This document shows positions 23,287-28,341 of a stretch of DNA of 64,000 nucleotides, piece by piece. The DNA is from Paramacrobiotus metropolitanus (lineage: Eukaryota; Tardigrada; Eutardigrada; Parachela; Macrobiotidae): contig NW_026570316.1 of NCBI RefSeq assembly GCF_019649055.1, positions 496,001 through 560,000 on the forward strand. Direction: 5' to 3'. Numbering within the stretch: position 1 is the first letter of the stretch; every line of letters starts with the position of its first letter. The translations under genes were made by a program, and so were the position numbers. The notes beneath the pieces are model-generated. The model ran no database searches. It had not been told where the DNA came from and saw only the letters and a program-made list of their open reading frames with translations.

Positions 23287-23983
23287 GTTGCTGCGAAAAA
23301 AGCGAAGAGTTTACATCCACACCAAGCAGCAGCAGTACCAGAGAATTTAGCACCCTACCTGCAGAAGGAGAGCGCACCCAGAACAGTAGTGTATATCTAT
23401 ACGGACTACCTGTACTCCAGAACACTATAACTACCTACTCGCAACTTACTCATTAAAAATAGAACCATTGGTAAAGCAAGTGCAAACAAGGACAGGCAAA
23501 TGTGGTATTAAATCAGAAACCAATTACTGCAAGACGACTAAACGAAGGAAGACTTTATTTAGACTGTTGCTATTCTTGGGAACAAATTTCTACTGACGGG
23601 TTTTCCGAAAATATTAATTTTGATCGAACGATAATCGAACACGTCTGAATTAAGCAAGTAGCTGCCTCTCGCTAAGGTTTTGCACAGCCTTTGTACTGTG
23701 TCGTATGTAATCCTCCAGTTAACTATAACGGGTTGCGGAAGTGCCTTGCGCCGTGTTATCGCTGGCGAACACAGAGCCTTCATAGCTTACTTGTATCGGA
23801 GACCTGTTGATCTGAAAGGGGTGGTTGGGCTCGTAACTTTTCAGGTTTGTGGGAGGCCAGTTGGCAGTCGCTCGTGGCTTTGTGCATTTTTCGAACATTT
23901 GTTCGGATTGGTTTGGAGGCGGCTTATCACAGTTCAAAACTACTGACTGCGAGGGCTGAATTTTTGCAAACGCAGATAACAAC
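23287..23983. other. Intergenic between F-box-2 and the LTR element
   Basis: An acceptor (TTTTTTCGCAG) immediately above the F-box-2 start suggests an upstream non-coding exon somewhere here. Minus-strand frame 23982-23719 reads PPPNQSEQMFEKC but has no other support. Nothing else was recognised. Confidence 0.35.
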
Positions 23984-24416
23984 TGTTACGGCCGTGGTGT
24001 TGACAAGTGGACGGCGGCTATCGTGGTTTGATTAATTGCCAATGTGCATGGTCTGCGTGCTCGTTAGTACGAGTATTAATTATGACCATATGTGTGTGCA
24101 GATATTTATATCTTTACCGTATCGTTCCTTATCTCTGTAAGATCGCTGACTGCTGGTCAAGTGGAATAATGAGGAGGCAGGATGAATGTGGCCTGCAGAT
24201 GTGGTTAATGAAACACAGTGATGGGATTGGTGCATGTGTTTTTCTAGCTTTGTGGCTGGTGCGAATATGAGCATATGATGTGGTATATAAGTTGATGCAA
24301 CTGTGGGAAGGCGGCACAGTTGTCGGAGTGCAGCTGTCATGATGTGGAATAAAGTTTAAGCTTTTTCCCTTAGTGTACGTTACGGTGGTAGACGTAGTAC
24401 ATTAAGGGTTATATCA
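23984..24416 (+). repeat. 5' LTR
   Basis: 433 bp, TG...CA. It contains a TATA-like GTGGTATATAAGTTG near 24278 and a poly(A) signal (GGAATAAAG) near 24345, consistent with promoter and R/U5 layout. Preceded by CAAC. Confidence 0.9.
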
Positions 24417-24434
24417 TTGGTGCCGAAACCGTGC

Positions 24435-24890
24435 TATATTGTTGGAATATTGGGATAATATCCGACAATATAACGGGTGAGGGGGAAAAGGTCATCGTTG
24501 GGGAAACGGTGAGCCGTGGAGTTTAATATTGTTGGTATATTGGGATAATATCTGACAATATAACTGGAGGAGAAGGAGGTCACCGTTGTGGGAACGGTGG
24601 GCCGAGTTGCTGGATATTGTTGAGATATTGGGAAATATCTAACAATATAGCGGAAGGAGAAAATCAGCGCTGTGGGAACGGGTAGCCGTGCTGTTGGACA
24701 TTGTTGGGATATTGGGATAATATCCGACAACATAAGAACAGGCCATACCTGTGGAAACGTGAACCGTGTTTTGGATATTGTTGAGATATTGGGATAATAT
24801 CCGACAATATAGGAAGTGGTCACCGCTTGGAAACGGTGAGCCGTGGGGTTTAAAATTGTTGGAATATTAGGCATATACCTCCGACAATAG
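24435..24890 (+). repeat. Array of six hairpin units in the LTR-element leader
   Basis: Six units start at about 24435, 24524, 24614, 24698, 24774 and 24852, spaced 76-90 bp. Each has a left arm ATATTGTTGGAATATT or a variant, a short GGGAT-type loop, and a right arm AATATCCGACAATAT or a variant, so each folds into a stem of about 15 bp. Between hairpins lies a second shared motif (GGAAACGGTGAGCCGTG and variants). The last unit ends one base before the gag start codon and is the most diverged. The array fills almost the whole leader. Confidence 0.9.
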
Positions 24891-24891
24891 A

Positions 24892-25860
24892 ATGGGCGAC
24901 AAGGATAATGTTACCGCTGTGGGAGCAGCCGGTGTGAAATATACCGTGAATGTAAACTCTCGCCAGTTAGCGAAGGAGTTTACTGATCTGAAATTGGCCA
25001 GTGACACCAAGCCACCGTTGTTTAGCGGGGAAGCTAAAGAAGTGGTGGAGGAATGGTGCCGGCAATTTCAGCGCATAGGTAATGCACTTGAGTGGACGGA
25101 TGCTGTCTTGCTGAAGCAGGCGCCGATATACCTGCGTGCATTTGCAGCCAACTGGTATGATAGGGAGACCAGTGACGGAGCGAGGATTCCATGGGCTGAC
25201 TGGGCGGCATTTAAAACGGCATTAATTGCCCGATTTCGTCCTAAGGACATGATTCAGCGTTACAAGCGTGAGATGCGACGCCGGAAACAATTGCCGGATG
25301 AGGACGTAAGTACGTATTTCAACGAGAAAGTTTCGAAATGTTACCTTGCTAATCCGAAAATGGACGATGCGGATGTTATCGAACATTTGAAAGATGGATT
25401 ACTTGAATCGTACTACGGTTATGTGGTGCTTTCTCAAGCGACTACGCCTACGGAGTTTTACGCTGATTTGGTGCTTGCACAAACTGCTGTGAAGCGCAGT
25501 AAGCGTAAGGAGAATAAGTACGTCACTGGGCCGGTGGCGTCTGATGAAGAAGAATGGGAAGAACATGAGCACCACCGCAAATATTACGGGCAGCGGGATG
25601 ATCGTCAAGAGGATGAAGACAGTACTGATATGCGCGGGAGCGACAGGTCGGTGATGCGGGTGATGACGATAGTGCTAGTGCATGCAGCGACGACGCGGTT
25701 GAGGACAACAGCGTTGTGCACAGTGGCGGCGCCGGTGCGGGCAGCACTGTGTATAATGCCGGCGGCCGGGATGAGCCGGGTGGCAGGACAAAGGACAACG
25801 GAAAACGGGGTTCAAAGTTTACGGAAGGTTAGCACAACGCGGTGCGAGGTCGTGCTATAA
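24892..25860 (+). CDS. Gag-like protein, frame broken before the zinc knuckle
   Basis: The 322-codon frame starts at an ATG directly after the last leader hairpin. Residues of roughly 40-200 fit the retrotransposon Gag capsid domain of Ty3/gypsy elements: PPLFSGEAKEVVEEWCRQF, then a Trp-rich helix pair with AANWYDRET and WADWAAFKTALIARF, then DVSTYFNEKVSKC and HLKDGLLESYYG. A CX2CX4HX4C zinc knuckle lies at 25853-25894, but one frame over; the acidic linker before it also reads better in a shifted frame. So this copy has at least one frame change between capsid and knuckle, natural or from sequencing. The knuckle frame stops soon afterwards. Confidence 0.85.
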   Translation: MGDKDNVTAVGAAGVKYTVNVNSRQLAKEFTDLKLASDTKPPLFSGEAKEVVEEWCRQFQRIGNALEWTDAVLLKQAPIYLRAFAANWYDRETSDGARIPWADWAAFKTALIARFRPKDMIQRYKREMRRRKQLPDEDVSTYFNEKVSKCYLANPKMDDADVIEHLKDGLLESYYGYVVLSQATTPTEFYADLVLAQTAVKRSKRKENKYVTGPVASDEEEWEEHEHHRKYYGQRDDRQEDEDSTDMRGSDRSVMRVMTIVLVHAATTRLRTTALCTVAAPVRAALCIMPAAGMSRVAGQRTTENGVQSLRKVSTTRCEVVL

Positions 25861-26133
25861 GTGTGGTGGCGTTGGACATTTGATGGCCCAATGCACGAAC
25901 AATAAGCCGCAGGTGAATTAAAAGCGGTGGAGGAAGATGTGTGCACAGAACAATAATAGGTTAATAATCGAGGCAGTGTAGTCGGGTTGGCTAATGTGCC
26001 CATTATTTAATTGGATTCCGTGCAGTTAATTAAGGATCAGCGCAATATCGTTCTCCGGATGGCCGTGATCTTGATGGTGCATTCAGATCAGCTGACCTAT
26101 TCTTCGGGACGAAGAATCTAAGCGGAGGGTAAT

Positions 26134-26570
26134 GTTACGGCCGTGGTGTTGACAAGTGGACGGCGGCTATCGTGGTTTGATTAATTGCCAATGTGCATGG
26201 TCTGCGTGCTCGTTAGTACGAGTATTAATTATGACCATATGTGTGTGCAGATATTTATATCTTTACCGTATCGTTCCTTATCTCTGTAAGATCGCTGACT
26301 GCTGGTCAAGTGGGAATAATGAGGAGGCAGGATGAATGTGGCCTGCAGATGTGGTTAATGTGAAACACAGTGATGGGATTGGTGCATGTGTTTTTCTAGC
26401 TTTGTGGCTGGGTGCGAATATGAGCATATGATGTGGTATATAAGTTGATGCAACTGTGGGAAGGCGGCACAGTTGTCGGGAGTGCAGCTGTCATGATGTG
26501 GAATAAAAGTTAAGCTTTTTCCCTTAGTGTACGTTACGGTGGTAGACGTAGTACATTAAGGGTTATATCA
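26134..26570 (+). repeat. 3' LTR
   Basis: 437 bp copy of the 5' LTR. The visible differences are nearly all insertions of one or two bases, several in G or A runs (GTGGGAATAATG for GTGGAATAATG, GCTGGGTGCG for GCTGGTGCG, TCGGGAGTG for TCGGAGTG). Followed by CAAC. Confidence 0.9.
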
Positions 26571-28341
26571 CAACAGTAACACGTAGTGACGTAGGTGCTT
26601 ATGAAGGGTTGCAATACAGAACTCACTCTAACTTTGTGCGAGATGATACAGCATTGCAAAGGCAACTTCTTGTTGCCCCGATAAAAGGAGGCTTGATGGT
26701 TTGTCGGTGACCGCCTGTGAAGGGAGACTAAGTGAACTTACCATTAATTAGTGAACTGCAGAAAAATCATACTACATACGAACATGTTGATCAATACTGG
26801 CACCAGGTGCCGGCACGCCACACGCACGATCGTCAAAGTGTACCCCCATTTTTGATCAGCTGAAAAGTCATCATGGAAAAAATAGCAAGGGCACGAGCAA
26901 GACGAAGTGCATGGATGACTTCCGACATACTCAGAAGTCTAGAAAAGTGTCAGAATTTCAGAATTCATACAAGTATCGCATTCTGCTATTTTCTGATTCA
27001 GCTAACACCAATGAAATGCATTTCTTCACAACCGACCTCTTTTGTTCGGCTACTATAGTATGCACAATGCATTATACACAGAATACAACTATTGGCATGC
27101 GATTATGGATTTCCGGCAATACGTATTGCCGGAAACCCAAGCTCATGTCACAAAGAAGTAACCACTATAACCGTGAAATCCCAAAAGGGATGACTCGAGT
27201 CACGAGCCACATGAAATACTACATACAACGCGCTGCGCCACACTGTTTGGGAAATCACAAAATGATTTTCAAACAACGTATTGTATTGCCATATAAGTAG
27301 TTACTGTACGTCCTGTATTATGCTGCAATTGCAGTACTACTGCAGATTTTATTAGCTAAAGTTTTTAGATCTAACTGTTATTACTGAAATGTGAAGCGAT
27401 ACTGTTGTTAAACAAGAAAGGCTACGCACTCGAACTTCGGCAATGCCAGTGCATTTTTGTTATAGAACGCCAGCGCAGCCATCACACTATAATCTGCACG
27501 ACTGGTTATTGTACGAGATTTCTGCGTTAACCCTTATAGTGGACCTGTTTATGAAACGGGCGTGCCTTTGCCCTTTGAGCACTGGAAACAGTGACGTAAA
27601 CTGCAGAGTTGCTAACGGGCGCACAGTGATCCTATTTCTTGCAAGATGGGTGCGCATCGGTGCAAAATTTCTCAACTAGAGTAGGACATTTATATAAATG
27701 AGCTGGATATGTTGCTCTGAATTTTTCATCATTTCAGAAAGGCGTATACGGTATACCTCAGCGATTTGCAGATAAAGTATACTATATTCACTACGGTACC
27801 AACGTGTTTCTTGTGCTTTCTAGACTGCATAAGCATGTAATACCATCGGCACCGCGCACGCTGTTGTGCAAATCAAGGTTAAGCACCAAAACTACCTGCT
27901 TTATGCAGGATCATAAGCGAAACTTCATAAACAGGGGACGTGAATTGCACCCGTGACCATCTGTCTCGTTACCGCTCCGCATCGTGTCTAATGCTAATAA
28001 TGCATACATTGTGCCTAAGCTGCTTAGATGCTGACACTTATATTTAACCCAAACTACGTCCGGTATCGAAAAAGAAAATATTTCTATGGGACATGGACGA
28101 TATATTTCTGCAAAGACAGCGGATAAAGTTTCATTTGGCTTAGACCGCATCACGAGCGGAACACCGGTAATACTGTAGGTCTACAGTACTGCTTTTTGTG
28201 ATCAGTACCGGCGTTTTCGATCGTTTTACCGACCGGCACGCGCCAACGTTTCCAAACCGCTTTTTTGAGAAATCATTCGATCAAAAATGCCATAATTTAT
28301 TAACATAACGTTTGTTAAATTACTTAGCTAATTACTGCATA
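26571..28341. other. Intergenic, no gene seen
   Basis: Short unlinked frames only. The 3' end is the presumed promoter region of SLC46-B. I found no tRNA, clear repeat or splice-consistent exon. Confidence 0.45.

What the first reader, a model, noticed from the sequence alone, without database searches (positions are those of the whole stretch)
24435..24890. Six hairpins in tandem fill the leader of a gag-only retrotransposon
Each 76-90-bp unit folds into a stem of about 15 bp and carries a second conserved motif. Differences between units sit partly at paired positions (for example GACAATAT/ATATTGTY and ACATTGTTGG/CCGACAACAT), which looks like compensatory change. An array like this might act as packaging, dimerisation or ribosome-entry signal for a parasite of other elements.
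Basis: partly seen in the sequence, partly recalled or inferred. Interest (0 to 1): 0.75.

Follow-up and report, generated by a model that had tools for sequence, protein, structure and literature searches.

The report
Reiterated leader hairpins in Gag-only retrotransposon
A small jumping element that makes only a capsid protein carries, in front of that gene, three to seven copies of a folded RNA module (the hairpin next to its reverse-transcription start site joined to the start of the capsid gene), where its full-length relatives have a single hairpin, which suggests a multiplied RNA handle that could help it be packaged.

Summary
Window 23984-26570 is a 2.6-kb LTR element (4-bp TSD, tRNA-Phe PBS, one gag ORF, no pol). 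Its leader holds six tandem units, each hairpin A (about 14 bp) plus hairpin B (7 bp). The array is in all eight copies found with a 5' end (3-7 units) and in none of the pol-bearing relatives examined.

New here: spacer + B is homologous to the first ~45 nt of gag, so a unit is 'post-PBS hairpin + gag start' and the sixth unit is the real gag start. Most Ty3-type relatives with the same PBS have one hairpin there and no repeats.

Strict double-sided changes are not in excess (A) or marginal (B). Pairing is still kept above a tree-based null (88% v 76%, p=0.001), partly through sense-strand G-U pairs. Gag is under purifying selection (dN/dS 0.07-0.15, capsid region); three copies have LTR pairs differing at one base.

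Best explanation: a multiplied Gag-binding (packaging/dimerisation) signal of a semi-autonomous element that makes Gag and borrows Pol. Function is inferred, not shown. Main rival: neutral duplication during reverse transcription.

The parts
23984..24416 (+). 5' LTR (433 bp, TG...CA), flanked by 4-bp target-site duplication CAAC (23980-23983 and 26571-26574)
   Evidence: 431 matches, 2 mismatches, 5 gap columns to the 3' LTR
24418..24433 (+). Primer binding site TGGTGCCGAAACCGTG, perfect 16-nt complement of the 3' end of this genome's tRNA-Phe(GAA) + CCA
   Evidence: tRNA gene ends CACGGTTTCGGCA
24430..24475 (+). First, PBS-clamped hairpin A1: CCGT of the PBS pairs with ACGG after the stem (ancestral post-PBS hairpin position)
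   Evidence: fold z -4.4, 0/200 shuffles
24436..24525 (+). Array unit 1: hairpin A1 (24436-24471) + gag-start-like spacer (ACGGGTGAG...) + hairpin B1 (24493-24511)
24526..24613 (+). Array unit 2: hairpin A2 + hairpin B2 (24581-24599)
24614..24697 (+). Array unit 3: hairpin A3 + degenerate B3
24698..24774 (+).
24775..24852 (+). Array unit 5: hairpin A5 + hairpin B5 (24821-24838)
24853..24931 (+). Array unit 6: hairpin A6 (24853-24891) joined to the real gag start; spacer + B lie inside the coding sequence
   Evidence: R1 model match 24849-24931, E 2.7e-7; homology of gag start to unit spacers
24892..25921 (+). gag: Retrotrans_gag domain, then zinc knuckle (about 25850-25900); the window copy is frameshifted near 25635, other copies have intact 334-344 aa ORFs
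25922..26132 (+). Short non-coding tail without pol, ending in the conserved purine tract AAGCGGAGGGTAA (26120-26132; putative PPT)
26133..26570 (+). 3' LTR (438 bp)

Best explanation
The array is a reiterated cis-acting RNA module of a semi-autonomous Ty3-type LTR retrotransposon. SHOWN: one unit = the hairpin that follows the primer binding site + the first ~45 nt of gag (hairpin B). Most related pol-type elements with the same tRNA-Phe PBS have a single hairpin in that place. The element has multiplied the module to 3-7 copies, keeps the stems paired in its sense RNA, keeps G-rich loops, and keeps an intact zinc-knuckle Gag under purifying selection. INFERRED: each module exposes guanosine-rich loops (A: GGGA; B: GTGGG/A) that the zinc knuckle of Gag binds. 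An array of 6-14 such loops raises the chance that this RNA, rather than a relative's, is captured (and perhaps dimerised) by Gag, while reverse transcriptase and integrase come from pol-bearing Ty3-type relatives that use the same primer. INFERRED origin: tandem duplication during reverse transcription at the PBS/leader, as decayed internal PBS copies in three elements and PBS duplications in two relatives suggest.
For: Array present in all 8 copies with a 5' end, with 5, 3, 6, 6, 6, 7 and 7 units in the other seven. Stem pairing is kept above a tree-based null: A+B 87.8% v 76.1%, p=0.001 when substitutions are reshuffled only among stem columns; A p=0.026, B p=0.007. Single changes from a pair favour those that pair only on the sense strand, 25 v 11 (p=0.014), against an opposite trend in unpaired columns (9 v 25). 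Loop guanosines are strongly conserved (A: 33/37 and 37/37; B: 28/29 and 28/29). Of 16 loci without an array that carry the exact PBS, 10 fold behind it at p<=0.05 and two at 0.055 and 0.08 (four do not: L069, L086, L088, L089), while control stretches at +120 nt mostly do not; within one family the stem changes on both sides (ACTG/CAGT v ACCG/CGGT), and between two others it gains a base pair (GGACG/CGTCC v GGAACG/CGTTCC). No tandem repeats in relatives' leaders and no match to the unit model in the relatives' loci. Gag dN/dS 0.07-0.15 over the capsid region. LTR pairs 447/448, 447/448 and 449/450 in three copies, 4-bp TSDs in six. The unit order predates the copies: within-copy unit distance 20-30%, matched units in close copies mostly 0-11%. 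HIV-1 NC binds exposed guanosines of leader hairpins near the gag start (PMC7395439).
Against: No binding, packaging or transcript data. Strict double-sided covariation is absent in A and marginal in B. Some units are degenerate (window units 3, 4 and 6), which a selected signal need not tolerate. Hairpin B is not demonstrable at the gag start of pol-type relatives. Unit number is variable, down to three. The leader is not clearly slower-evolving than the LTR (C1 v C142: 9/514 v 17/447, p=0.07), and recombination between copies could mimic constraint.
Confidence: 0.5

Rival explanations
1. Neutral by-product: the PBS-leader-gag-start stretch is duplicated by slippage or template switching of reverse transcriptase, helped by the hairpin. 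Extra units are tolerated because they mostly lack AUG and lie in untranslated RNA.
For: Decayed internal PBS in C1/C142/C35 units. Independent PBS duplications in relatives L069 and L070. Variable unit number. UTR tandem repeats attributed to such events are common in plant Ty3-type elements (PMC7004042).
Against: Units are old (20-30% apart) yet still fold. Pairing kept above a tree-based null, p=0.001. Array present in every copy with a 5' end although collapse is easy. Relatives' leaders have no array.
Confidence: 0.27
2. Translation control: the hairpins and the reiterated gag-start context set how ribosomes reach the gag AUG (shunting, ribosome entry, or a downstream hairpin that helps start-codon choice), tuning Gag output.
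For: No ATG in the 475-nt window leader against 11.5 in mononucleotide shuffles, and few in other copies (repeats are not independent, so this is overstated). The unit start is ATG in one unit and ACG in many. In the real gag start, hairpin B begins about 18 nt after the AUG.
Against: Other copies keep 2-5 upstream ATGs. Strong stacked hairpins usually impede scanning. The array was not tested for ribosome entry. Reiteration is hard to explain by start-site choice alone.
Confidence: 0.15
3. DNA- or host-level role (promoter/enhancer or protein-binding repeats, or a recombination hot-spot) rather than an RNA structure.
For: Tandem repeats near an LTR can bind host factors (general knowledge); the arrays contain AT-rich dyads.
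Against: Changes that pair only on the sense strand exceed those that pair only on the other strand (25 v 11), which a DNA dyad does not predict. The array lies in the leader behind the PBS.
Confidence: 0.08

Closest known systems
[quoted passage not shown] Chaparro et al. 2015, cited in PMC8704663)
   Same: Two LTRs and one ORF for Gag with no pol; a member was seen to transpose, so Pol must act in trans (PMC8704663)
   Different: Described in plants; no hairpin array in the leader is mentioned in the passages read; there an ATCOPIA63 element with a pol-bearing relative of high similarity, here the closest pol-bearing Gag is only 53% identical
RLG_Quinta / RLG_Cereba pair of wheat (PMC11302176)
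   Same: Non-autonomous partner with an intact Gag ORF and no RT/IN, sharing PBS (and LTR termini) with an autonomous partner
   Different: No tandem leader array reported in the passages read; centromere targeting not tested here; the specific autonomous partner is not pinned down here
Ty3 gRNA 5' region of yeast (PMC11381356)
   Same: Structured 5' end holding PBS, dimerisation site and the start of GAG; a minimal Ty3 needs the 5' UTR and part of GAG in cis
   Different: Initiator tRNA-Met bipartite PBS; no tandem array reported in the passages read
Retroviral psi packaging signals (e.g. HIV-1 leader, PMC7395439)
   Same: Several hairpins with exposed G-rich loops between PBS and gag start, the leader reaching into gag; bound by CCHC zinc knuckles
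   Different: The HIV-1 hairpins are non-identical parts of one compact fold, not 3-7 repeats of one module; Gag binding is not shown here
Tandem repeats in 3' UTRs of plant Tat/Ogre retrotransposons (PMC7004042)
   Same: Tandem repeats inside an LTR element, thought to arise during replication
   Different: Those lie downstream of gag-pol and can expand to satellites; these lie between PBS and gag, include the gag start and keep RNA pairing

Membership tests
TR-GAG-type non-autonomous LTR retrotransposon | Two LTRs, TSD, PBS and purine tract | tested here: met
   LTRs 433/438 bp, TSD CAAC, 16-nt tRNA-Phe PBS, AAGCGGAGGGTAA before the 3' LTR
TR-GAG-type non-autonomous LTR retrotransposon | Single ORF encoding Gag, no pol | tested here: met
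   Retrotrans_gag + zf-CCHC only; 211 nt between the gag stop and the 3' LTR; intact in four other copies
TR-GAG-type non-autonomous LTR retrotransposon | Plant host, as described | not tested
   Host not named; a 169.8-Mb eukaryotic assembly with tRNA-Phe-primed Ty3-type elements
Semi-autonomous partner of a pol-bearing element (Quinta/Cereba criteria) | Identical PBS in the autonomous family | tested here: met
   TGGTGCCGAAACCGTG exact in L052/L053/L056, L061/L064 and others
Semi-autonomous partner of a pol-bearing element (Quinta/Cereba criteria) | Shared LTR termini and PPT | tested here: inconclusive
   LTR starts TGTTACG (gag-only), TGTTACG (L061 family), TGTTACA (L063 family), TGTCACG (L052); 3' LTRs and PPTs of the relatives not read
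Ty3-type LTR retrotransposons (Metaviridae) | RT-RNase H before integrase in pol | tested here: inconclusive
   The element has no pol; its nearest Gag relative (53%, C45) has RVT_1, RNase H, then H2C2 and rve integrase in one open frame
Retroviral-type packaging signal (psi) | Needed in cis for capture of the RNA by Gag | not testable with these tools
   Needs RNA-protein or co-expression assays
Retroviral-type packaging signal (psi) | Conserved hairpins with unpaired G between PBS and gag start | tested here: met
Any curated RNA family (Rfam 15) | Match to a covariance model | tested here: not met
   No match at E<=1 over 23900-26700
3'-UTR tandem-repeat regions of Tat/Ogre elements | Location downstream of the coding region | tested here: not met
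   Array lies between PBS and gag, and includes the gag start

The most novel reading that the evidence does not exclude
A Gag-only retrotransposon competes for packaging by multiplying its own packaging module: the PBS-adjacent hairpin fused to the gag start is reiterated 3-7 times and bound by the element's own, still selected, zinc-knuckle Gag, while Pol is borrowed from relatives that have only one copy of the hairpin.
Probability: 0.35. Interest if true: 0.8.

Novelty: new variant of a known kind. Interest (0 to 1): 0.55.

Why it matters
Gag-only elements are known in plants, but how such elements win RNA packaging against full-length relatives is, to my knowledge, open. Here nature supplies a dose series (3 to 7 modules in sibling copies, one hairpin in relatives) of a small, defined RNA module with its cognate Gag. 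That makes the packaging-competition idea directly testable and could give a minimal packaging signal for a Ty3-type element.

Tried and rejected
Integrase family search of the genome was too crowded to place a partner; a 3.5-kb piece of the nearest Gag relative was read instead. First alignment of relatives' post-PBS hairpins had wrong coordinates and is not used. Hairpin B at the gag start of pol-type relatives: rejected, no excess stability. First structure string for hairpin B paired the wrong columns, superseded. Compensatory change in hairpin A: rejected. Known RNA family: none. Autonomous sibling with the same LTR: none among the LTR matches examined, which apart from the gag-bearing copies look like solo LTRs. 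Papers on tandem packaging hairpins in LTR elements: none found in the held library, which is incomplete; Chaparro 2015 itself is not held.

Full report
What is there. The window carries a complete short LTR element at 23984-26570: 5' LTR, a 16-nt PBS, a 475-nt leader, gag, a 211-nt tail with a purine tract, and a 3' LTR, flanked by the 4-bp duplication CAAC. The PBS TGGTGCCGAAACCGTG is an exact complement of the 3' end of this genome's tRNA-Phe(GAA) plus CCA. Gag has a Retrotrans_gag domain and a CCHC zinc knuckle, and there is no pol. The window's gag is frameshifted near 25635; four other copies have intact 334-344 aa Gags.

The observation. The leader consists of six tandem units starting at 24436, 24526, 24614, 24698, 24775 and 24853. 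Each holds hairpin A (ATATTGTTGGnATATT-gggat-AATATCYGACAATAT) and hairpin B (CACCGTT-gtggg-AACGGTG). The whole leader and four of the six units fold clearly better than dinucleotide shuffles; units 4 and 6 do not. So 'six hairpins' is right, and 'a second motif' is a second hairpin.

Other copies. A genome search with the leader finds eight elements with the array, counting the window's: C96 (window), C65, C182, C79, C23, C1, C142, C35, with 6, 7, 7, 5, 3, 6, 6 and 6 A hairpins, 46 in all. A ninth gag copy (C65 near 573.7 kb) keeps a 3' LTR but has no recognisable 5' LTR or array. Six copies have 4-bp TSDs. Three have LTR pairs that differ at one base (447/448, 447/448, 449/450), so the family has moved recently. 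Gag capsid regions show dN/dS of 0.07-0.15 between copies: the protein is maintained.

What a unit is. In nearly every copy the last A hairpin is followed directly by ATGGGCGACAAGGATAAGGTCACCGCTGTGGGAGCAGCCGGTG (or a close variant), the start of gag; in C79 a partial B stands in between. The corresponding part of upstream units reads ACGGGTGAGGAGGAAAAGGTCATCGTTGTGGGAACGGTGGGCCG, and in C65 unit 1 it still begins with ATG. Local alignment of the C1 and C65 gag starts with five such unit segments beats nearly all of 2000 shuffles (0 to 5 of 2000 reach the score); the window's own gag start is more diverged, with one of five comparisons not significant. A covariance model built from upstream units only recognises 24849-24931, which runs across the gag ATG, at E 2.7e-7. 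A unit is therefore the post-PBS hairpin plus the gag start. In C1, C142 and C35 a decayed second PBS (TTGTTGCCGAAAATCGTGCTG) lies inside the array, and two gag relatives carry duplicated PBSs (L069, L070). This points to duplication during reverse transcription, which is inferred.

Relatives with pol. The nearest other Gag in the genome is 53% identical and sits in a 2647-aa open frame. A 3.5-kb piece of it has RT, RNase H and integrase domains in Ty3 order; pol was not read in the other relatives, though several sit in long open frames. It and further families share the PBS, and their LTRs start TGTTACG, TGTTACA or TGTCACG. Directly behind the PBS most carry one hairpin, often using the CCGT of the PBS as one arm: of 16 loci without an array but with the exact PBS, 10 fold there at p<=0.05, two at 0.055 and 0.08, and four (L069, L086, L088, L089) do not. 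That hairpin is conserved as a structure while its sequence changes: ACTG/CAGT v ACCG/CGGT within one family, and a base pair gained on both sides (GGACG/CGTCC v GGAACG/CGTTCC) between two others. The relatives' leaders hold no tandem repeats and no match to the unit model. The multiplication is thus special to the gag-only lineage, as far as the sequences held can show.

Is structure maintained? Simple counts show no excess of double-sided change in A and some in B: six cells v 2.3 in shuffles, at three pairs. On a tree of 33 units, with substitutions reshuffled only among stem columns, pairing is kept more than expected: A 90.7 v 80.2% (p=0.026), B 82.1 v 67.2% (p=0.007), together 87.8 v 76.1% (p=0.001). 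Single changes from a pair that keep it only on the sense strand (G-U) number 25, against 11 that would keep it only on the other strand (p=0.014), while unpaired columns lean the other way (9 v 25). This favours RNA of the transcript over a DNA dyad. Caveats: parsimony on short sequences, one tree, recombination between copies, and composition differences between stems and loops.

Age and turnover. Units inside one copy differ by 20-30% on average, matched units of close copies mostly by 0-11%. The array is therefore older than the present copies and has not been homogenised; units have been lost and gained. Within the C1/C142/C35 group the leader differs by 1.6-1.8%, no more than the LTR at 2.0-3.8%; the difference is not significant (p=0.07).

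How it most likely works. The loops carry conserved guanosines (A: GGGA; B: GTGGG/A). CCHC knuckles of retroviral NC bind exposed guanosines of leader hairpins close to the gag start (PMC7395439), and a minimal Ty3 needs the 5' UTR and part of GAG in cis (PMC11381356). I therefore judge the array most likely to be a multiplied Gag-binding (packaging, possibly dimerisation) signal of an element that makes its own Gag and borrows Pol (0.5). The binding and its benefit are inference. The main rival is tolerated duplication without function (0.27), then translation control (0.15).

Known or new. Gag-only LTR elements are known (TR-GAG; Quinta with Cereba), as are tandem repeats in retrotransposon UTRs. 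A leader array that reiterates the PBS hairpin together with the gag start was not found in the held literature or in Rfam. I class it as a new variant of a known kind.

Noticed in passing
L070:1153-1190 and L069:1265-1301: Two gag-bearing relatives carry tandemly duplicated primer binding sites just behind the LTR, independent examples of PBS-region duplication.
   Followed up: partly
L081:2550-3129: The 3' LTR of the C35 copy contains an internal duplication (two ends about 177 bp apart).
   Followed up: no
L076:1877-3170: The C182 copy's gag is interrupted by about 1.3 kb of other sequence; the copy spans 4056 bp and still has a TSD.
   Followed up: no
L079, L080, L081: LTRs of the C1/C142/C35 group end in AAGA rather than the usual CA, yet are flanked by 4-bp TSDs.
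   Followed up: no
L084 and C45:281-289 kb: The pol-bearing relative appears to encode Gag and Pol in one 2647-codon open frame.
   Followed up: partly
L082:1100-1760: A ninth gag copy begins at the gag start with unrelated sequence upstream and has a 3' LTR only.
   Followed up: no
24434-24910 (-): A 158-codon open frame runs antisense through the array; probably a by-product of the repeat.
   Followed up: no
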